From contig NZ_CP095855.1 in NCBI RefSeq assembly GCF_023100805.1, positions 7,667,001-7,731,000 on the forward strand: 64,000 nucleotides of DNA. Reading direction: 5' to 3'. The notes beneath the pieces are model-generated. The model saw only the letters and a program-made list of their open reading frames with translations. It was not told the DNA's origin and ran no database searches. Shown piece by piece: positions 16,075-27,832 of the stretch (within the stretch, counting starts at the first letter, position 1; the number at the start of each line of letters is the position of its first letter). Source of the DNA: Chitinophaga filiformis. GTDB lineage: Bacteria > Bacteroidota > Bacteroidia > Chitinophagales > Chitinophagaceae. Both the position numbers and the translations under genes were made by a program.

Positions 16075-18537
16075 ATGAAAAACAAAGCGCGCGGATGGCA
16101 AGTGATAACAGAATGGCTCGCTGCACATGACAGGAAGCCTTTTGCTTTCCAGGAAGAAGCCTGGGAGCATTACCTGCAAGGCAGATCAGGCCTTGTAAAC
16201 GCCCCTACCGGTTACGGTAAAACCTTCTCTCTCTTCCTGGCGGTGGTGATCGACTGGATCAATAAACACCCGAAGGATTATCAGCAGAAAACAAAGAACG
16301 GCCTGCAAATGATGTGGATCACTCCGCTACGCGCATTGGCAAAAGATATTGCCCGCGCCATGGAGGAAGTACTGCAGGAACTTAATATGTCCTGGCAGGT
16401 TGGTATACGCAGTGGGGACACCCCTATTTCTACCCGTCAGCAGCAAAAGAAACAGATGCCGGAGATATTGATCATCACACCGGAAAGCCTGCACCTGCTG
16501 ATGGGACAAAAAGAATATGCGAAGGTCTTTACACACCTGACAACAGTGGTGGCAGATGAATGGCATGAACTACTGGGCAGCAAGCGTGGGGTAATGGTGG
16601 AACTGGGCCTCAGCCGGCTCCGTGGTCTGGCAAAGAAGGCAGGGCGACCTCCCCTGAAGGTATGGGGCATCTCGGCCACTATCGGCAACCTGGAAGAAGC
16701 GCTGGATGTCTTATTGGGCCGGCCGGACCCGGAGGCGGTGATCATACGCGCCAGACTGGGCAAGAAGATAGAACTGCAAAGCATCCTGCCGGATGAGATC
16801 GAAAAATATCCCTGGGCAGGCCACCTGGGTACCAGGTTGCTCTATAAAGCCCTGCCGGTGATCATGAACAGTCAGACCACCCTCATATTTACAAACGTCC
16901 GTTCACAAACGGAGATCTGGTACCAGGAAATATTGCGCCAGTGCCCTGAACTGGCGGGCGCTATTGCCCTCCATCATGGCTCTATCGATGCGGAGCTCCG
17001 GGTATGGGTGGAAGAAGCCCTGCACACCGGCGTGCTGAAAGCAGTTGTATGCACCTCCAGTCTTGACCTGGGCGTAGATTTCAGGCCTGTGGACACGGTG
17101 ATACAGGTGGGTAGTCCGAAGGGAGTAGCCCGTTTCCTGCAGAGAGCCGGCAGAAGCGGTCACCAACCCGGCGCCACCAGTAAGATCTGGTTCCTGCCCA
17201 CACATAGCCTTGAACTGGTGGAGGCAGCGGCATTGAAGGCGGCGATGGAAGAACAGCTGGTAGAGAGCCGCCTGCCCGTTCTACTGGCCTTTGACGTGCT
17301 ACTGCAATACCTGATGACGCTCGGCATCTCAGATGGTTTTCATGCGCCTGAAATATGGGAAGAAGTGACGGGGACTTTCTGTTTCCGTGATATGACGGAA
17401 GATGAATGGGCCTGGATATTATCTTTTCTGTCTACCGGTGGAGAAGCGCTGTATAGCTACGATGAGTTCAAAAAACTGGAAAGGGAGGGCGATTTCTTCA
17501 TCTGTCGCAGCCGTATGCTGGCCATGCGGCACCGCCTGCACATCGGCACCATCGTGAGCGATGCCATGCTGAAAGTGAAGTTCATGAGCGGAGGCTTTAT
17601 TGGTATGATCGAAGAATGGTTCGTTGCACGCCTGCAGCCGGGCGATGCTTTTAGCCTGGGAGGACGCACACTCGAATTTGTGATGATCAAAGATATGACG
17701 GTGCTGGTGCGCAAGTCGGCCGCCAAACGGGCCATTGTGCCCAGTTGGATGGGAGGACGGCTTCCTCTTTCTGCCAATCTCGGAAAGATATTACGCCGCA
17801 CTTATAATGAGGCACTATCCGGCAAATCGGATATGCCGGAGATCAAAATATTGCAACCGCTGTTCGACTTACAGGAGCAATTGTCGCATATACCGAAAGA
17901 CAATGAGCTGCTCATTGAAATGATCCATACCCGCGACGGTTATCATATGTTCGTCTATCCTTTTGAAGGACGACTGGTGCATGAAGTGATGGCTGCCCTG
18001 CTGGCCTACCGTATCAGTAAGCGCCAGCCCATTACCTTTTCAATGGCGATGAACGATTACGGGTTTGAGCTGCTTTCCGATCAGCCAATTCCTGTCAGCG
18101 ACGGAGACGTGCACGATCTGTTTTCCCTTGAGAACCTGAGCAATGACCTGCAGGCCAGTGTGAACTCCACAGAAATGGCCCGCCGTAAGTTCAGGGATAT
18201 TGCTGTCATTGCCGGCCTGATATTCCAGGGTTACCCTGGTAAGCACAAAGCCAGTCGTCACCTGCAATCGTCTGCCTCCCTGCTGTTCAACGTGTTCAGG
18301 GACTACGATCCGCAGAACCTGCTGCTGCGGCAGGCATTCAATGAGGCCTTCTTCTACCAGATGGAAGAGGCACGTCTGAGGGAAAGTCTGGAGCGTATTT
18401 ACAACAGCGATATTATTATTACAGCGCCTGAGGCATTGACACCATTCTGTTTTCCGATCAAGGTAGACAGTCTCCGCGAAGAGCTCACCAGTGAAAAACT
18501 GGAAGACAGGATCAAAAAAATGCGTCCGCAGATATAG
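16075..18537 (+). CDS. Ligase-associated Lhr-like DEXH-box helicase
   Basis: An 820-residue superfamily 2 helicase. Motif I is NAPTGYGKT (residues 42-50), motif II is DEWH in VVADEWHELLG, motif III is ISATIGN, and motif VI is FLQRAGRSGHQPG. An Lhr-core C-terminal region follows, giving the length expected for the ligase-associated helicase group. It acts in DNA damage response with the ATP-dependent ligase, exonuclease and PdeM. Its gene is 33 bp before pdeM, forming an operon, but it is separated from the ligase gene by about 4.1 kb of unrelated genes. ATPase and unwinding are expected from the motifs. Confidence 0.93.
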   Translation: MKNKARGWQVITEWLAAHDRKPFAFQEEAWEHYLQGRSGLVNAPTGYGKTFSLFLAVVIDWINKHPKDYQQKTKNGLQMMWITPLRALAKDIARAMEEVLQELNMSWQVGIRSGDTPISTRQQQKKQMPEILIITPESLHLLMGQKEYAKVFTHLTTVVADEWHELLGSKRGVMVELGLSRLRGLAKKAGRPPLKVWGISATIGNLEEALDVLLGRPDPEAVIIRARLGKKIELQSILPDEIEKYPWAGHLGTRLLYKALPVIMNSQTTLIFTNVRSQTEIWYQEILRQCPELAGAIALHHGSIDAELRVWVEEALHTGVLKAVVCTSSLDLGVDFRPVDTVIQVGSPKGVARFLQRAGRSGHQPGATSKIWFLPTHSLELVEAAALKAAMEEQLVESRLPVLLAFDVLLQYLMTLGISDGFHAPEIWEEVTGTFCFRDMTEDEWAWILSFLSTGGEALYSYDEFKKLEREGDFFICRSRMLAMRHRLHIGTIVSDAMLKVKFMSGGFIGMIEEWFVARLQPGDAFSLGGRTLEFVMIKDMTVLVRKSAAKRAIVPSWMGGRLPLSANLGKILRRTYNEALSGKSDMPEIKILQPLFDLQEQLSHIPKDNELLIEMIHTRDGYHMFVYPFEGRLVHEVMAALLAYRISKRQPITFSMAMNDYGFELLSDQPIPVSDGDVHDLFSLENLSNDLQASVNSTEMARRKFRDIAVIAGLIFQGYPGKHKASRHLQSSASLLFNVFRDYDPQNLLLRQAFNEAFFYQMEEARLRESLERIYNSDIIITAPEALTPFCFPIKVDSLREELTSEKLEDRIKKMRPQI

Positions 18538-18570
18538 TTTGAGAGAGATACAGTAGTTTTACCGGAGATT

Positions 18571-19218
18571 ATGGAGGAAGTGATTTACAGACACCAGGAC
18601 CAGACCTGGCATTTATCGGCCCACCGGGCTATTTTCTGGAAAGAAGAACAGGCGCTGATCGTGTCTGACCTGCACCTGGGTAAATCCGCCCATTTCAGGA
18701 AAGCAGGAATAGCCGTTCCTGCCAACATCGGGCAAGACGACCTGTACCGCCTGCAGTTGCTGATTACTGCCTATAACCCCTCCCAGATCATTATTGTAGG
18801 AGATATGTTCCACAGCCGGGAGAACAATGACGTGCCTTACTTTAAACTCTGGCGTCAGCAATTTGCACATATCCGTTTCAAACTGGTAAAAGGCAATCAT
18901 GATATATTGCCTGCCGCTACCTATGAAGCGCTGAACGTCGAGGTGTTTGATACGCTGATCATCCGCGATATTCATTTCATACATGAGCCCTGCTCGGAAG
19001 AAGATGCAGCGGGGTATACTTTCTCGGGGCACCTGCACCCGGGGATCGTTGTTGCCGGCGCGGGACGGCAGCGCTTACGCCTGCCCTGTTTCTACTTCGG
19101 CAGGCATTGCAGCATTTTACCCGCTTTCGGGCGCTTTACGGGCCTCGCCATGCTGGAGCCAGCTGTTGATGAGGCAGTATTCGTTATCGCTGAAAATAAC
19201 GTCTTAAAAGTCAATTAA
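18571..19218 (+). CDS. pdeM: Ligase-associated metallophosphoesterase PdeM
   Basis: A 215-residue calcineurin-like phosphoesterase. Metal ligands are visible in SDLHLGKSAHF (Asp33, His35), VGDMFHSREN, KGNHD and SGHLHPG. The motif SDLHLGKSAHFRKAGIAVP near the N-terminus is characteristic of the ligase-associated group, predicted to act as a DNA endonuclease or phosphodiesterase with the helicase and ligase. The helicase lies 33 bp upstream and the deacetylase-fold gene overlaps its stop by one base, so all three are translated from one message. Confidence 0.92.
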   Translation: MEEVIYRHQDQTWHLSAHRAIFWKEEQALIVSDLHLGKSAHFRKAGIAVPANIGQDDLYRLQLLITAYNPSQIIIVGDMFHSRENNDVPYFKLWRQQFAHIRFKLVKGNHDILPAATYEALNVEVFDTLIIRDIHFIHEPCSEEDAAGYTFSGHLHPGIVVAGAGRQRLRLPCFYFGRHCSILPAFGRFTGLAMLEPAVDEAVFVIAENNVLKVN

Positions 19219-21091: not shown

Positions 21092-21293
21092 GATAAGGAA
21101 TGATTGATTAGCCGATGTCCGACATATCGTCGTAACACCAGGAGATGCAAATGCTGTTATGCAATGCATACATTAATATACGAAATTAATCAATTCTTCA
21201 CCCTGACAACCTACGGGGAAAATAACAATACTATCTCTGCCGCTATACTTACAGCGTTCCTCTACACAAACAACAATATCTTTGGGTTTATGC

Positions 21294-22046
21294 TTAATCC
21301 TTGATCCGCTTCTTCAGCATGCTCACCTGATCCTGCAGATGGCTCACCATATCAGCCAGGTGATTTACACTCAGGCGACTTTGCTGACCTGTTTTGCTGA
21401 TGACAGCATCTGACTGCCAGAGTTCAAGGACTTCATCCATACCAACCGCATAGGGTTCATATTGCGGATTATCTGACACCAGTGTGATCTTTCCTTTAGT
21501 GCGGTTGCTTTTAAGCACACGTTTATAAACAATGCCCTCACGGCTGGTCACCACTACATAGGCTTCATTGTTGCGGATCTCTTCCCAGCCATCTACTTTG
21601 TGGCAAACGATCACTGATCCGGACGGAGTGGGTAACATAGAATCTCCTGCGATCTCGAATGCCCTGTAGCTGCCTGCACCCATCATAGGGAGCGTGAAAG
21701 TGTTCAGTTCTTCAATGAATTCATCATCGTTGTAGCCAGCCAGGTATCCTGCCGCAGCTTTTACAGGTACGAACTCTATCTGCTGACGATCATTCGCCAT
21801 CTTCTGCTGTCTGCGTTTTTCCAGGAAACTCTCTTTCTGGGAACCTACATCACGACGTAATAAGTCATCAATGGATATACGGAACATATCACTGACCAGT
21901 TCGAGCACTTCTGTGCGGGGTTCTGCACGTTCTTCTTCGTAAGCGCCCAACAGGGAACGTTTGATCCCTAATTTATCAGCAAACTCCTGCTGCGTCCAGC
22001 CTTTCTGCTTGCGCAGGAATTTTAAATTGCGGCATACTACTGACAT
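21294..22046 (-). CDS. LexA-like repressor: XRE helix-turn-helix plus S24 autoprotease
   Basis: A 250-residue regulator. The N-terminal Cro/CI-type HTH spans about residues 4-60 (LKFLRKQKGWTQQEFADKLG). The C-terminal S24 domain has the full self-cleavage set: scissile Ala99-Gly100 in VKAAAGYL, nucleophile Ser136 in AGDSMLPT, and Lys175 in IVYKRVL. The intervals (36 and 39 residues) nearly match those of LexA, so RecA-stimulated autocleavage is likely. A coiled C-terminal tail follows. Two palindromes at 22049-22083 lie directly upstream, one over its predicted -7 element, implying autorepression. Matching sites precede dinB. Non-canonical LexA proteins of this architecture are known in Bacteroidota. 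Confidence 0.93.
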   Translation of the reverse strand: MSVVCRNLKFLRKQKGWTQQEFADKLGIKRSLLGAYEEERAEPRTEVLELVSDMFRISIDDLLRRDVGSQKESFLEKRRQQKMANDRQQIEFVPVKAAAGYLAGYNDDEFIEELNTFTLPMMGAGSYRAFEIAGDSMLPTPSGSVIVCHKVDGWEEIRNNEAYVVVTSREGIVYKRVLKSNRTKGKITLVSDNPQYEPYAVGMDEVLELWQSDAVISKTGQQSRLSVNHLADMVSHLQDQVSMLKKRIKD

Positions 22047-22048
22047 AA

Positions 22049-22083
22049 TCTAAATAATTTAGTACGTTACTAACAAAATTAGC
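22049..22083. promoter_or_regulatory. Tandem operator pair and promoter of the XRE/S24 repressor
   Basis: Two 15-bp palindromes: TCTAA-ATAAT-TTAGT (22049-22063) and ACTAA-CAAAA-TTAGC (22069-22083), centres 20 bp apart. On the minus strand TAATTTTG (22081-22074) fits the -7 element, with TTTG (22106-22103) as -33 at 21-bp spacing. The second palindrome therefore covers the repressor's -7 box. The same motif pair occurs at 23487-23520. Confidence 0.75.
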
Positions 22084-22157
22084 ATATAATTTTTATAATT
22101 ACCAAATATATTCCGGTCAGCTTAACTTATTTTTGCCCGTAAATCCAACTCAATATT

Positions 22158-22607
22158 ATGCATAACACGTTGTTAATTATTCACTCGCTGTTAAGGTGGG
22201 CAATCGTACTGACAGGATTATGGGCCGTGATCCGTGCATTGAAGGGCGTTAGTAGTAAATCACCTTACACCGCCGCAGATAAAAAAGCAGGTCTTTTCTT
22301 CATGATCTTCCTGGATACACAATTGCTGATAGGCTTACTGCTTTACTTTGTAACCAGCGCATTCGGACTTAAAGCTTTTCAGGAATACGGAGGTGAGGTG
22401 ATGCGTAACGGCGGGCTTCGTTATTATGCAGTTGAACATGTATTTGTTGCTATCGTAGCCATTGCACTGGTGCACATCGGACGTGCCAAGGTGAAAAAGA
22501 CGGCACAGGATGCACAGAAACATAAAACTTCCCTGATCTTCTTCGCCCTTGCATTGATCATACTGGCAACACGCATTCCATGGGAAAGAGGTCTGCTGGG
22601 CTACTAG
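22158..22607 (+). CDS. Four-helix membrane protein, possible haem-binding
   Basis: A 149-residue integral membrane protein with four predicted transmembrane helices (about residues 3-28, 44-70, 90-110, 124-142). Histidines His9, His94 and His106 fall within helices, as in small b-type cytochromes; the N-terminal HSLLRW and the EH pair in the third helix look conserved in character. I do not recognise a characterised family. It is divergent from the LexA-like repressor and shares its operator region, so it may be under the same control; the operators are 75-109 bp from its start. A terminator follows it. Confidence 0.75.
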   Translation: MHNTLLIIHSLLRWAIVLTGLWAVIRALKGVSSKSPYTAADKKAGLFFMIFLDTQLLIGLLLYFVTSAFGLKAFQEYGGEVMRNGGLRYYAVEHVFVAIVAIALVHIGRAKVKKTAQDAQKHKTSLIFFALALIILATRIPWERGLLGY

Positions 22608-22641
22608 TATAATACTCATCACACTATATTTCATAAAAGTG

Positions 22642-22676
22642 AAGGCTGTCCACTTAAGGTGAACAGCCTTTATTTT
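22642..22676 (+). terminator. Rho-independent terminator
   Basis: AAGGCTGT-CCAC / GTGA-ACAGCCTT stem (22642-22670) with a small loop, followed by TATTTTTA. It separates the membrane protein gene from the convergent SdpI-like gene. Confidence 0.85.
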
Positions 22677-22705
22677 TATATGTGACCACTAAAACACCTG
22701 ATCCC

Positions 22706-23380
22706 TTATCCCTTGTCCGTATTGAACAGGCGGTAAGAATAAATATAAGGCAGCGCTGCCAGGATACCTCCTGTAAAGATCAGCAAAAAGGTACCTGTTA
22801 CTACCGGCAGGAAGAATCCTGCAATGATCATAACAATCCCGGTACACAACCAGAGGTTTCCCGCAAAAGCATGCGTTTCGCGCCAGATATCGTCGCTCTT
22901 CAGCGTCCAGGGCGTTCGTACGCCAATGAAATAGTTCGGCTCAAGCCGCCTCAGGTAAATACCTATCACCCCGATCAGTAATCCCACTCCCGTAAACACC
23001 CAGCGCTCTATCACAAACGGATGGCCCTGACTGGCCATAAAAATGATAGCCGCGGTAAAAATTGCCAGGTAGATATGGATCATGAAACGGATCTGGTAGT
23101 ACTTCCTGTGAAATACAGTCATATCCTTGTGGTGAATATCCGGCTCATCCACATGCGGAATGTACCGGAACAAAAAATATAACAGCAGATTAGTAAAGAA
23201 CAGGAACGTCATCAGGAGAAGAAAGTCACTTTTGGCACCCACCCGCTCGGCAACACCGCCTACGCTGAAATTAGTCGGCATAACGTCTGGCAGGGAAGGC
23301 CAGATAATTCCCAGATAGATCATGGGTACTATCAATAACAACAATAACAACAGTTCCTGGCCAATATCAGGCTTTTTCAT
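22706..23380 (-). CDS. SdpI/DUF1648-type membrane protein
   Basis: A 224-residue protein with about six membrane helices. The N-terminal part resembles DUF1648 (LPDVMPTNFSVGGVAERVG), and the C-terminal part carries the SdpI signature NYFIGVRTPWTLKSDDIW. In Bacillus, SdpI gives immunity to a killing factor and signals to a repressor; most Bacteroidota members have no assigned role. The upstream in-frame part to 23413 is not membrane-like, so MKKPDIGQE at 23380 is chosen. The operator pair at 23487-23520 lies between this gene and dinB, so control of this gene is also possible. Confidence 0.85.
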   Translation of the reverse strand: MKKPDIGQELLLLLLLIVPMIYLGIIWPSLPDVMPTNFSVGGVAERVGAKSDFLLLMTFLFFTNLLLYFLFRYIPHVDEPDIHHKDMTVFHRKYYQIRFMIHIYLAIFTAAIIFMASQGHPFVIERWVFTGVGLLIGVIGIYLRRLEPNYFIGVRTPWTLKSDDIWRETHAFAGNLWLCTGIVMIIAGFFLPVVTGTFLLIFTGGILAALPYIYSYRLFNTDKG

Positions 23381-23481
23381 GAGAAAGTGTTTTGTTTGAA
23401 AGTAAGTTGACAAATACTGTACCCGCTTACGGCACCCTTATAATTAACCATTATCCCCTCCAATTTGTTATTGACTGGTTA

Positions 23482-23520
23482 TTTGTACTAATATTATTAG
23501 CACAAACTAAAAATATTAGT
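23482..23520. promoter_or_regulatory. Tandem operator pair upstream of dinB
   Basis: Two 15-bp palindromes: ACTAA-TATTA-TTAGC (23487-23501) and ACTAA-AAATA-TTAGT (23506-23520), centres 19 bp apart. The first is extended by TTTGT/ACAAA to arms of 12 bp with one mismatch (23482-23506). Same motif and spacing as at 22049-22083. It lies 140 bp before the dinB ATG and 106 bp before the SdpI-like gene. I could not place a convincing promoter for dinB. Confidence 0.72.
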
Positions 23521-23659
23521 AAATTCGCTCCGGATCGTATAGTACATGGGCGATGGTCCGTGGACAGGCAATGCCCTCATAGCCTATGTCATACACATGC
23601 CGCCCGTCCATAGACTGTTTCCTGTGTACTATTCATCACCTGAACCATTACCGTAGCTT

Positions 23660-24874
23660 ATGATTTCTTTGCAGCACAGGTCCATTGCTCATTTCGACAT
23701 GGACAGCTTCTTCGTATCAGTAGAATGCAGGGATGACAACAGCCTGAAGGGGAAACCATTGCTGATAGGAGGTATGAGTGATCGTGGTGTAGTAGCCTCC
23801 TGTAGCTATGAGGCCCGCCGTTATGGCATCCATTCCGCTATGCCCATGAAAATGGCGCTGAAACTATGTCCCCACGCTATCGTCAGAAGAGGGGATATGG
23901 AGAAATACAGCCAGCTCTCCCGCGAAGTCACCGAACTCATAGCCGATAAGGCGCCGCTTTACGAAAAGTCTTCCATAGATGAATTTTACCTGGACCTGAC
24001 CGGCATGGACAAATTCTTCGGTTCCATGAAATGGACAGCAGAACTACGCCAGCACATCATGCGGGAAACACAGTTGCCTGTTTCTTTCGGACTGGCTTCC
24101 AACAAAATGATCTCGAAAGTAGCTACCAATGAAGCCAAGCCCAACGGACAAATGGAGATCCTTTTCGGCGAAGAAAAAGCTTTCCTGGCCCCTATGCCGG
24201 TGGAAAAACTACCCATGGTGGGTAAAGAAACAGCCGGTCAGCTAAGACGTCGTGGGGTGGAAACAGTGAAAACACTGAGCGAAATACCCGTTAATCTGCT
24301 CGAAGCATGGCTGGGGAAGAATGGCATCTCCCTGTGGAACAAAGCCAATGGTATTGACGAATCTCCTGTTGTGCCATATCATGAACAGAAATCTATCTCT
24401 ACAGAAAATACCTTCTCTTCCGATACCATCGACATGCAGTTCATTCATGCAGAATTGGTACGGATGACAGAAAAGATCGCCTTCGAACTGCGCCAGCAAA
24501 ACAAACTCACCGGTTGCGTTACCGTAAAGATCCGCTATTCAGACTTTGAAACTGTTACCAAACAAATGACTATTCCCTATTCTGGCAGTGATCATATACT
24601 ACTTGAAAAAGTGAAAGAGCTTTTTAATAAACTCTATGACCGGCGGCTCCTGATCCGTCTGATAGGTGTACGTTTCAGTCACCTGGTACAAGGCAATTAC
24701 CAGATCAGCCTGTTCGACGATACACAGGAAATGATCGCACTCTACCAGGCTATCGACAATATTAAAAACCGGTTCGGATGGCAATACCTGATGAAGGGTA
24801 CCAATGCAGTACCGCCTGCAAAAAGGGGAACCGTACGAAAACCGGATATCATGCCTTATCCTAAAGTGAGATAA
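23660..24874 (+). CDS. dinB: DNA polymerase IV (Y-family translesion polymerase)
   Basis: A 404-residue Y-family polymerase. Catalytic acidic residues are Asp13 (and Asp15) in HFDMDSFF and Asp107/Glu108 in SSIDEFYLD; the steric-gate region is FFVSVECRD. The C-terminal little-finger domain holds QISLF (348-352), a beta-clamp-binding pentapeptide. It copies past lesions at low fidelity. dnaE starts 12 bp after its stop, so the two form an operon like the imuB-dnaE2 mutasomes of other bacteria, although here the catalytic residues of the Y-family member are intact, unlike ImuB. A LexA-like operator pair lies upstream. Confidence 0.95.
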   Translation: MISLQHRSIAHFDMDSFFVSVECRDDNSLKGKPLLIGGMSDRGVVASCSYEARRYGIHSAMPMKMALKLCPHAIVRRGDMEKYSQLSREVTELIADKAPLYEKSSIDEFYLDLTGMDKFFGSMKWTAELRQHIMRETQLPVSFGLASNKMISKVATNEAKPNGQMEILFGEEKAFLAPMPVEKLPMVGKETAGQLRRRGVETVKTLSEIPVNLLEAWLGKNGISLWNKANGIDESPVVPYHEQKSISTENTFSSDTIDMQFIHAELVRMTEKIAFELRQQNKLTGCVTVKIRYSDFETVTKQMTIPYSGSDHILLEKVKELFNKLYDRRLLIRLIGVRFSHLVQGNYQISLFDDTQEMIALYQAIDNIKNRFGWQYLMKGTNAVPPAKRGTVRKPDIMPYPKVR

Positions 24875-24886
24875 ACGCCTGCTGAT

Positions 24887-27832
24887 ATGTATCTCAACTG
24901 CAAATCCTTCTTCAGCCTGCGCTATGGTACTATTGATACGAAAGACCTGGTCAGGATTGCCCGTGAAACAGGCGTTACATCTCTTGCGCTAACCAATATC
25001 AACATCACATCCGATACATGGAACTTCGTAAAGGAATGCCAGGAACAAGGCATTAAACCTATCATAGGTCTCGAATGCAGGAACGGACACGAGCTGAAAT
25101 ACATTCTGCTGGCGCGCGATATGGAGGGATGGTTCTATATCAACCGCTTCCTCTCCGATCATCTGCATAAAGCACTTCCCTTCCCCGACCGTGCCCCGGC
25201 CTTTCCCGGTATATTTGCCATCTATGCCTGGGGAACCCTGCCATTGCATGATCTGCATGCACATGAACTGTTAGGCATCCGCCGCCGCGAGATCAATAAA
25301 CTGTTCCGCGTAGATACCATGTCCTACCAGCACAAACTCGTTATACTGCAACCTGTCACTTTTCAGGATACCGATCATTATGAACTGCATCGTGTATTGC
25401 GCGCTATCGATCAGAATATCCTCATCAGTCAGCTGCTGCCACATACCACCGCCCAGGCAGACGAACAGTTCCTGCCGCCGGCCATATTGTTTGAGAGCTT
25501 TGAACAATATCCGCATATCATCAGCAATACAGTGCGGGTGATGGATGCCTGCCAGATCGACTTCAACTTTAAAACACCCCGCAACAAAAAACATTTTACA
25601 AACAGTGAGGAAGAAGACCATGCGCTGCTCAGGCAATTAGCATATGAAGGCATGCTGAGACGTTATGGCCCCGACAATGAAGAAGCAAAAGCGCGCATTG
25701 AAAAGGAACTGGGTGTTGTGCAGGAACAGCATTTTGATTGTTATTTCCTCATCACCTGGGATATCATCCGCTATGCGCAGGAAAGAGGCTTCTTCTATGT
25801 GGGCCGTGGTAGTGGCGCTAATTCTATTATCGCGTACTGCCTGAAGATCACAGACGTTGACCCCATAGAACTGAATCTTTATTTCGAAAGATTTCTCAAT
25901 CCTTATCGCAGATCTCCTCCCGACTTTGATATCGACTTCTCATGGCGGGACAGGGATGAGATCATTGACTATGTTTTCAACAAATATGGCAACGTACATA
26001 CAGCCCTGTTGGGTACGGTTACTACGTTTCAACAGAATGCAACCATCCGGGAACTGGGCAAGGTATATGGTCTTCCAAAACACGAAATAGATAAAATACT
26101 GGACACGCCTTTCCAACCCGATCTCACGGGCGATAGTGTGCAGCGGAATATCCTGCGCTACAGCCAGCTGATGTCGGGCGCAAAGGCATTTCCCAATCAT
26201 CTTAGCATCCACGCAGGCGGTATCCTCATCAGTGAGGCGCCCATTCATCAGCACTGCGCTACTTATATGCCACCCAAAGGCTTCAGCACGGCACAACTGG
26301 ATATGCACCAGGCAGAAGCTATCGGGTTGTTCAAATTCGATATACTTAGTCAGCGGGGCCTCGGTCATATCAGGGACTCCCTGGCCATTATCAAAGAAAA
26401 TAAAGGCATAGATATCGACATCCATGATGTAAAAGCATTCATGCAGGATCCACGTGTACAGCACGAGCTGAAAACAGTGAATACCATTGGCTGCTTTTAT
26501 ATTGAATCGCCCGCCATGCGGCAGTTGTTACAGAAATTGCAATGTGAAGACTATCTCACGCTGGTAGCCGCCAGCTCTGTAATACGGCCAGGCGTAGCGC
26601 AATCAGGTATGATGCGGCAATATGTGCACAACTACCGTAACCAGGACAAGGTAGTATACCTGCATGAAATTGTGAAGCAGGTATTAAGCGAAACATTCGG
26701 CATCATGGTATACCAGGAAGATGTGATCAGGATCGTGCATGAATATGCTGATATGGACCTTGCCGATGCTGACATCCTGCGCAGGGCTATGGCAGGGAAA
26801 TACCGCGGACAGGGAGACTTTCAGAAAATAGAACAGCAGTTCTTCACGAACTGTAAACGGCTGGGAAGACCTGACGATGTAACAAAGGAACTCTGGCGGC
26901 AGATTGCCAGCTTCTCCGGCTTCTCTTTTTCAAAGGCACACTCGGCAAGCTTTGCAGTGGAGAGTTACCAGAGCCTTTTCCTGAAGACTTATTTCCCTGC
27001 GGAGTTTATGGTAGCAGTTATCAACAACTTCGGCGGCTTTTATAACAGGGAACTGTACTTTCGTGAATTACATAAGACCGGTGCTATCATTAAAGCACCC
27101 TGCATTAATAACAGTGAATACTATACGAGAATAACAGGCAACACGGTGTATACCGGCTTCATTCATATTGAAGGACTGGAAGAAAAATGGATGCAGGAAG
27201 TACTGGAAGAACGTACATTGTACGGTGCTTTCGAGAACCTGGAAGATTTTGTTGCACGTGTTGCGCCACCGCCGGAACAACTGGATATACTGATAAGAAT
27301 AGGCGCTTTTAATTTTGATGCGCATACCAAAAAAGAATTGCTGTGGAAGAGCAGCCTGCTGCTGAGAAAAAGGGCGCCGCATGCAGAACATATACAACCC
27401 TTGTTCCGGGAGCAGGTACCCGAATGCCAGTTACCAATGTTATCGTATCATGAGCATGAACATGCATTCGAAGAAATTGCATTGCTGGGCTTTCCCTTAT
27501 GCTCTCCCTTTGATATTCTTCAACATGACCAGCAGGGATATGTTCCTGCGAAGCGTTTTAAGGAGCATAAAGACAAGCTTATTTCCACACTGGGATACCT
27601 GGTGTGTACGAAGGGAATTTATACCAGCAAAGGCATTCCTATGAGCTTTGGCACCTTCATGGATGTAAACGGCGATTTTATTGACACCGTACATTTCCCC
27701 GATATCCTCAAACAATATCCTTTTCAGAAAGGAGGTTTTTATATACTGCAGGGAAAGGTGACAGCCGAGTATGATGTGTATTCAATTGAGGTGAGCTACA
27801 TGCGGAAGATCGGCTACTTTGAAGATAAATAA
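24887..27832 (+). CDS. dnaE: DNA polymerase III alpha-like (second DnaE, mutasome type)
   Basis: A 981-residue C-family polymerase, shorter than replicative DnaE (about 1160). Catalytic aspartates are in PDFDIDF (Asp346, Asp348, Asp350), with GRGSGANSI before it and the FSFSKAHSASFAVESYQ palm/finger motif later. The N-terminal PHP domain has lost its metal ligands: the usual HxHSxxS reads LNCKSFFS, and TDH reads TNI. The C-terminus keeps an OB-like domain but is truncated compared with replicative enzymes. Coupled to dinB (12-bp gap), it is most likely an error-prone polymerase induced on DNA damage rather than the main replicase. Confidence 0.92.
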   Translation: MYLNCKSFFSLRYGTIDTKDLVRIARETGVTSLALTNINITSDTWNFVKECQEQGIKPIIGLECRNGHELKYILLARDMEGWFYINRFLSDHLHKALPFPDRAPAFPGIFAIYAWGTLPLHDLHAHELLGIRRREINKLFRVDTMSYQHKLVILQPVTFQDTDHYELHRVLRAIDQNILISQLLPHTTAQADEQFLPPAILFESFEQYPHIISNTVRVMDACQIDFNFKTPRNKKHFTNSEEEDHALLRQLAYEGMLRRYGPDNEEAKARIEKELGVVQEQHFDCYFLITWDIIRYAQERGFFYVGRGSGANSIIAYCLKITDVDPIELNLYFERFLNPYRRSPPDFDIDFSWRDRDEIIDYVFNKYGNVHTALLGTVTTFQQNATIRELGKVYGLPKHEIDKILDTPFQPDLTGDSVQRNILRYSQLMSGAKAFPNHLSIHAGGILISEAPIHQHCATYMPPKGFSTAQLDMHQAEAIGLFKFDILSQRGLGHIRDSLAIIKENKGIDIDIHDVKAFMQDPRVQHELKTVNTIGCFYIESPAMRQLLQKLQCEDYLTLVAASSVIRPGVAQSGMMRQYVHNYRNQDKVVYLHEIVKQVLSETFGIMVYQEDVIRIVHEYADMDLADADILRRAMAGKYRGQGDFQKIEQQFFTNCKRLGRPDDVTKELWRQIASFSGFSFSKAHSASFAVESYQSLFLKTYFPAEFMVAVINNFGGFYNRELYFRELHKTGAIIKAPCINNSEYYTRITGNTVYTGFIHIEGLEEKWMQEVLEERTLYGAFENLEDFVARVAPPPEQLDILIRIGAFNFDAHTKKELLWKSSLLLRKRAPHAEHIQPLFREQVPECQLPMLSYHEHEHAFEEIALLGFPLCSPFDILQHDQQGYVPAKRFKEHKDKLISTLGYLVCTKGIYTSKGIPMSFGTFMDVNGDFIDTVHFPDILKQYPFQKGGFYILQGKVTAEYDVYSIEVSYMRKIGYFEDK

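What the first reader, a model, noticed from the sequence alone, without database searches (positions are those of the whole stretch)
22049..23520. Matched tandem operators link a LexA-like XRE/S24 repressor to dinB-dnaE
Two regions each carry two copies of a 15-bp palindrome ACTAA-N5-TTAG(T/C): 22049-22063 (first base T), 22069-22083, 23487-23501 and 23506-23520. Centres are 20 and 19 bp apart, about two helical turns, and in each pair one copy ends in C and one in T. One copy covers the predicted -7 box of the repressor gene. The repressor keeps Ala-Gly/Ser/Lys at LexA-like spacing. Together this predicts a self-regulating damage switch with cooperative binding of two dimers. Non-canonical LexA proteins are known in Bacteroidota; whether this motif is described I cannot check.
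Basis: partly seen in the sequence, partly recalled or inferred. Interest (0 to 1): 0.82.

Follow-up and report, generated by a model that had tools for sequence, protein, structure and literature searches.

The report
Paired operators of Bacteroidota SOS repressor
The paired palindromes are binding sites of an already described DNA-damage (SOS) repressor of Bacteroidota, and comparing many genomes shows that coming in closely spaced pairs is a conserved habit of the repressor's own gene and of its error-prone DNA polymerase targets.

Summary
In detail: four CTAA-N5-TTAG palindromes form two pairs (20 and 19 bp) upstream of an XRE/S24 repressor gene and of dinB-dnaE. The 8.26-Mb genome (genus Chitinophaga by its relatives) holds exactly five such pairs (0 in the backwards control): before lexA, dinB-dnaE, imuA-imuB-dnaE2, a PA0069-type radical SAM gene and the UDG-linked radical SAM gene. 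New, as far as searched, is the pairing rule. 80 of 80 lexA relatives and 44 of 46 dinB loci have two perfect sites at gene-specific spacings; recA has one in 29 of 30 genus genomes. Outside the family, 28 of 47 lexA homologues keep a pair (0.19 expected), mostly at 17 or 22-23 bp, also where half-sites have diverged. Spacings of 17-24 bp suggest neighbouring dimers but speak against a strict two-turn face; cooperative binding is unproven. A 2H-phosphoesterase gene has a perfect site in 30 of 30 genus genomes and looks like an unlisted regulon member.

The parts
21294..22046 (-). lexA: non-canonical LexA, XRE/CI-type HTH plus S24 peptidase domain, 250 aa
   Evidence: Pfam HTH_3 and Peptidase_S24; catalytic residues invariant in 81 of 81
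22049..22063 (.). proximal operator of lexA (CTAA-N5-TTAG at 22050-22062)
22069..22083 (.). distal operator of lexA (CTAA-N5-TTAG at 22070-22082)
22074..22081 (-). -7-like box TAATTTTG of lexA, inside the distal operator
   Evidence: read; conserved position in 49 of 49 Chitinophaga loci
23487..23501 (.). first (upstream) operator of dinB-dnaE
23506..23520 (.). second operator of dinB-dnaE
23520..23527 (+). -7-like box TAAATTCG of dinB, directly after the second operator (one mismatch to TANNTTTG)
   Evidence: read; a perfect box at this place in 27 of 47 Chitinophaga pairs
23660..24874 (+). dinB, Y-family polymerase (Pol IV type)
   Evidence: Pfam IMS, NCBIfam PRK02406 above its cut-off
24887..27832 (+). 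dnaE-type DNA polymerase III alpha, 12 bp after dinB, probably in one operon
   Evidence: Pfam DNA_pol3_alpha, PHP; TIGR00594 above its cut-off

Best explanation
This is the SOS switch of a Chitinophaga species. The repressor is a non-canonical (CI-like) LexA whose dimers bind CTAA-N5-TTAG. At its own gene and at dinB-dnaE, imuA-imuB-dnaE2 and two radical SAM repair genes, two dimers sit side by side over or next to the -7 box and block RNA polymerase. After DNA damage RecA filaments trigger self-cleavage at Ala99-Gly100, dimers leave the operators, polymerases and repair genes are made, and the repressor gene is released too so that the system can reset. Shown here: sites, pairs, targets, conservation, catalytic residues. 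Shown by others in relatives: binding and induction by mitomycin C. Inferred: cleavage and repression in this species, and that pairing gives tighter repression. I put true cooperativity at about 0.5: the short, narrow range of spacings is best read as neighbouring dimers that touch with some flexibility, rather than as a fixed two-turn face.
For: Domains and catalytic residues. Five pairs in the genome, 0 in control, each before a gene of a known SOS group. Pairs in 60 of 60 genus genomes, 262 against 9 in the control. Two perfect sites in 80 of 80 lexA loci and 44 of 46 dinB loci. Family: 52 of 55 exact pairs at 19-24 bp out of an allowed 13-43. At dinB the gap sequence varies (25 distinct in 47) but its length is 5 or 6. 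Outside the family 28 of 47 lexA homologues have a pair, 0.19 expected. Published binding and induction in relatives (PMC8565304).
Against: No binding, cleavage or expression data for this species. Spacings of 17-24 bp span most of a helical turn, which weakens a rigid contact model. In the published EMSA on P. actiniarum recA, changes to one dyad abolished binding, so binding of that probe did not need a second site. 19 of 47 homologues outside the family show no pair, and exact pairs there are at background (27 against 25). In other genera of the family recA has a pair in 3 loci, so paired versus single is not a fixed property of the gene. Related genomes are not independent samples.
Confidence: 0.88

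Rival explanations
1. Two independent sites without contact: the second operator only raises the chance that at least one dimer covers the promoter, and spacing is set by the need to overlap or flank the -7 box.
For: At lexA the -7 box lies inside the distal operator in 49 of 49 Chitinophaga loci, and in many 23-bp pairs outside the family a TANNTTTG-like stretch fills the gap. Spacing is not tied to one helical face.
Against: At dinB the box lies after both operators, yet the gap length is still 5 or 6 while its sequence varies. Spacings above 24 bp are nearly absent in the family (3 of 55), although a promoter would have room for them.
Confidence: 0.4
2. The repressor is a prophage-type regulator whose operators at dinB are incidental.
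For: The HTH is closest to phage and mobile-element repressors in NCBIfam, below cut-off, and in solved structures.
Against: Orthologues with paired sites in 80 of 80 examined loci; the other genomic pairs stand before repair genes; published SOS role of the group (PMC8565304).
Confidence: 0.02
3. Chance palindromes in A+T-rich intergenic DNA.
For: Single sites with one mismatch are no more frequent than in shuffles; single perfect sites with an A/T core number 24 in the genome against 19 in the control.
Against: Pairs: none in 100 shuffles, none in the genome control, conserved across the genus.
Confidence: 0.005

Closest known systems
Non-canonical LexA of Bacteroidetes, CTAA-N5-TTAG group (PMC8565304; abstract, sections 12, 14, 15, 18, 19 and passages read)
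   Same: Repressor architecture, operator motif, self-regulation, regulon with dinB, imuA-imuB-dnaE2, radical SAM, UDG-linked genes, recA and radC; Chitinophagaceae named as having large regulons; two or more sites noted in several promoters
   Different: The sections and passages read give no spacing rule for paired sites, no single-versus-paired contrast and no 2H-phosphoesterase gene; its supplementary tables could not be read here
Canonical E. coli LexA and its own promoter
   Same: S24 self-cleaving SOS repressor; E. coli K-12 lexA has two SOS boxes at -45 and -24, 21 bp apart, close to the -36 and -16 here
   Different: Winged HTH and CTG-N10-CAG operators (recalled); no match of the repressor here to the LexA equivalog model
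Colicin gene operators of E. coli (PMC2994835; passages read)
   Same: Two LexA dimers at one promoter, linked there to tight silencing
   Different: Overlapping boxes on plasmid toxin genes; here the two sites are separate
Lambda CI (recalled, not tested)
   Same: S24 repressor with CI-type HTH that binds neighbouring operators cooperatively at slightly varying spacing
   Different: Phage switch; cooperativity is not shown here, and a C-terminal heptad tail is present

Membership tests
Non-canonical LexA of Bacteroidetes (CTAA-N5-TTAG group) | XRE/CI-type HTH N-terminal domain plus S24 C-terminal domain | tested here: met
   Pfam HTH_3 1.8e-13 and Peptidase_S24 7.2e-10, both above cut-off
Non-canonical LexA of Bacteroidetes (CTAA-N5-TTAG group) | Scissile Ala-Gly and Ser-Lys dyad | tested here: met
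   A99-G100, S136, K175 invariant in 81 of 81
Non-canonical LexA of Bacteroidetes (CTAA-N5-TTAG group) | CTAA-N5-TTAG in its own promoter and before SOS genes | tested here: met
Non-canonical LexA of Bacteroidetes (CTAA-N5-TTAG group) | Extra C-terminal alpha-helix | tested here: inconclusive
Non-canonical LexA of Bacteroidetes (CTAA-N5-TTAG group) | Falls in the published clade with the P. actiniarum protein | not tested
   No tree was built with the published sequences
Non-canonical LexA of Bacteroidetes (CTAA-N5-TTAG group) | Specific binding and induction by DNA damage | not testable with these tools
   Needs EMSA and RT-qPCR or RNA-seq
Canonical LexA (TIGR00498) | Match to the LexA equivalog model | tested here: not met
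   TIGR00498 is not among the 9 NCBIfam families matched at E <= 0.001

The most novel reading that the evidence does not exclude
In Chitinophaga, and in part across Bacteroidota, SOS repressors use a two-grade operator code: two operators at a gene-specific, length-conserved spacing of 17-24 bp, bound cooperatively by two dimers (perhaps joined through the C-terminal heptad tail), for the repressor itself, mutagenic polymerases and radical SAM repair genes, against a single operator for recA and a 2H-phosphoesterase gene. The pair at lexA persists while the half-sites drift, and E. coli lexA reached the same tandem arrangement with an unrelated DNA-binding domain.
Probability: 0.4. Interest if true: 0.55.

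Novelty: new member of a known kind. Interest (0 to 1): 0.4.

Why it matters
It places this genome in a described SOS system and adds a testable rule: which genes get two operators, and how far apart. If pairing means tight silencing, DNA alone would predict which genes are held back until damage is severe, in a phylum whose SOS control was described only in 2021 (PMC8565304). It also gives a comparison with E. coli lexA, whose repressor has a different DNA-binding domain but the same tandem arrangement.

Tried and rejected
Strict two-turn phasing: rejected, spacing runs from 17 to 24 bp. A small upstream ORF in the dinB leader: rejected, its start codon is not kept in all of the six relatives printed. 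A general excess of single sites in the genome: not found (24 against 19), so single-site targets are claimed only where conservation across genomes was tested. Pairs confined to Chitinophagaceae: suggested by exact pairs (27 outside the family against 25 in the control), then rejected for lexA, where degenerate pairs are common. Paired versus single as a fixed property of the gene: not upheld, recA has a pair in 3 loci of other genera of the family. Linking the heptad tail to pairing: could not be tested, structure prediction was off, and tails of varied sequence occur outside the family too. Rfam: no match at E <= 1 in 21200-24000. Correction: an earlier count said 11 of 13 single-site family lexA loci have a one-mismatch partner; recounting one search gives 10 of 13.

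Full report
Observation. As single sites with up to one mismatch they are not unusual in the window (12 found, 12.95 expected). As pairs they are: 2 in the window and none in 100 shuffles; 5 in the 8.26-Mb genome at any gap from 0 to 30 and none in the backwards control.

Targets in this genome. The five pairs stand before the repressor gene; dinB-dnaE; an ImuA-like gene (NCBIfam ImuA E 1.7e-17, 63.9 bits, below the cut-off of 150) followed by an IMS-domain polymerase gene and an error-prone DnaE gene; a PA0069-family radical SAM gene whose ATG follows the pair by 4 bp; and the UDG-linked radical SAM gene followed by a TIGR03915 putative repair gene. Of 24 single perfect sites with an A/T core, 10 belong to the pairs; the backwards control has 19. 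Among the 14 others, by inspection of flanking ORFs, sites precede recA, uvrA, radC and a 2H-phosphoesterase gene, also a SWIM-domain, a metallo-beta-lactamase-fold and a SocA/Panacea-domain gene; conservation was tested for recA, uvrA and the 2H-phosphoesterase gene only.

Organism.

Known system. PMC8565304 (abstract, sections 12, 14, 15, 18, 19 and passages) describes these repressors as non-canonical LexA, the CTAA-N5-TTAG operator, binding by EMSA, induction by mitomycin C, and a regulon with dinB, imuA-imuB-dnaE2, splB, UDG-linked genes, recA and radC, with large regulons in Chitinophagaceae among others. [quoted passage not shown] In its main text 'cooperativ', 'two sites', 'multiple sites', 'tetramer', 'RNA ligase', 'phosphoesterase' and 'uvrA' do not occur. 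In the paper library one paper, this one, holds LexA with this motif string, none holds Chitinophaga, LexA and SOS as whole words, and none holds LexA, 'tandem operators' and 'cooperative'. Absence is claimed for these searches only.

The pairing rule in the genus and near it. One search kept the best 80 of 142 relatives of the repressor; 80 of 80 have exactly two perfect sites within 200 bp upstream, spaced 20 (34), 21 (2), 22 (12), 23 (21) or 24 (11) bp. dinB was found in 46 of these 80 loci: 44 have two perfect sites at 18 (29) or 19 (15) bp, 1 has one, and 1 has none within 320 bp, although one search shows a pair further out in that locus (L029). In 30 genus genomes (loci) the PA0069 gene has two perfect sites in 28 and one in 2, spacing 21 in 26 of 28; both exceptions have a degenerate partner at 21. 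recA has one perfect site in 29 and none in 1; 2 of the 29 have a one-mismatch neighbour at 18-24 bp. uvrA has one in 9 and none in 21. The 2H-phosphoesterase gene has a perfect site in 30 of 30 (28 one, 2 two; 9 of the 28 have a one-mismatch neighbour at 18-24 bp). Genus-wide there are 262 pairs in 60 of 60 genomes against 9 in the control; of the 75 pairs whose sequence was listed 73 lie at 18-23 bp. Family-wide there are 55 pairs in 35 of 60 genomes against 7; 52 of 55 lie at 19-24 bp. Of 113 pair rows classified (some are one pair seen in two overlapping loci), 77 had a recognised SOS-type gene next to them: lexA 29, PA0069 15, imuA 11, dinB 11, dnaE 4, recA 3, UDG-linked radical SAM 3, radC 1; 36 were not recognised by that script, among them truncated dinB and lexA loci, UmuD-like genes and 2H-phosphoesterase genes.

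Beyond the genus. In 60 family genomes 56 have a homologue at E <= 1e-20, some of them distant. I examined upstream DNA of the best 30: 16 have two perfect sites, 13 one, 1 none within 250 bp; 10 of the 13 have a one-mismatch partner at 22-24 bp. In a class sample of 198 genomes exact pairs outside the family are at background, 27 against 25, 10 of the 27 at 17-24 bp, p 0.13. But upstream of 47 lexA homologues from outside the family (27, 20), 20 have a perfect site, and 17 of these 20 have a partner within one mismatch at 17-24 bp, 0.26 expected from shuffled flanks. Allowing diverged half-sites (CTA-N7-TAG twice, at most one mismatch in the twelve fixed bases, any spacing from 13 to 40), 28 of 47 have a pair, 0.19 expected; spacings are 23 (17), 17 (7), 22 (3), 20 (1); 19 have none. 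In many of the 23-bp pairs a TANNTTTG-like stretch fills the gap. Related sequences are not independent, so the chance figures are a guide only.

Geometry and mechanism. In 49 of 49 Chitinophaga lexA promoters the -7-like box begins one base inside the distal operator; of 47 second pairs in the same loci (45 before an identified dinB), 27 have a perfect box directly after the second operator, the window one with a mismatch. The pair's place relative to the promoter thus differs between genes while the two operators stay close, and at dinB the gap sequence is free (25 distinct in 47) but its length is 5 or 6. I read this as selection for neighbouring dimers; the range of 17-24 bp speaks against a rigid two-turn contact. 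The repressor's tail has Val or Leu at positions 227, 230, 234, 237, 241 and 244 in 80 or 81 of 81 sequences and mostly Ile, Leu or Met at 248, a heptad pattern like a short coiled coil; whether it joins or stabilises dimers is unknown.

Comparison. E. coli K-12 lexA has two SOS boxes at -45 and -24, 21 bp apart, and colicin genes have two overlapping boxes linked to very low basal expression (PMC2994835, passages). The Acinetobacter UmuDAb operator, of another S24 repressor, shows signs of two binding sites (PMC11332147, passages). The Deinococcus damage regulon includes a 2'-5' RNA ligase gene, ligT, in the recA operon (PMC5552922, passages), so a 2H-family protein in the regulon here would be a parallel.

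Verdict. An already described SOS switch, correctly spotted from sequence alone; the conserved operator pair and its gene-specific spacing are the added value, and cooperativity is the open test.

Noticed in passing
window 23528-23659 (+): The dinB leader (about 130 nt) of this clade can form one long hairpin: 7 related sequences, 96.6 percent of cells paired, 6 pairs changed on both sides against 2.6 in shuffles (3 of 500 reach it); folding z -2.5 in the window and -5.2 to -7.8 in five relatives. Eleven leaders of other clades give z -0.7 to -2.9, and many species have leaders under 60 nt. No Rfam match.
   Followed up: partly
own genome 6907501-6908106 (-), L125:99-707; relatives L344-L373: A 2'-5' RNA ligase superfamily (2H phosphoesterase) gene has a perfect CTAA-N5-TTAG site within 250 bp upstream in 30 of 30 genus genomes, and pairs stand before such genes in other genera; not named in the main text of PMC8565304.
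   Followed up: partly
L171, L175, L219, L224, L238, near position 1500: In several Chitinophaga a 23-bp pair stands about 140-160 bp before a 445-aa class protein with weak TPR matches and no recognised repair link.
   Followed up: no
L209, L217, L222, L227, L235, near position 1500: UmuD-like genes directly after 22-23 bp pairs in other Chitinophaga; the L235 protein is above the cut-off of the polymerase V autoproteolytic subunit model; the others were judged by eye.
   Followed up: partly
window 16075-19218 (+): Ligase-associated DEXH helicase and PdeM endonuclease genes (TIGR04121, TIGR04123 above cut-off) lie about 2 kb from lexA; no operator pair there.
   Followed up: no
window 22158-23413: Two membrane-protein genes (one without a Pfam match, one SdpI/DUF1648) lie between lexA and dinB; the lexA-dinB neighbourhood is kept in most Chitinophaga loci (dinB found in 46 of 49).
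   Followed up: no
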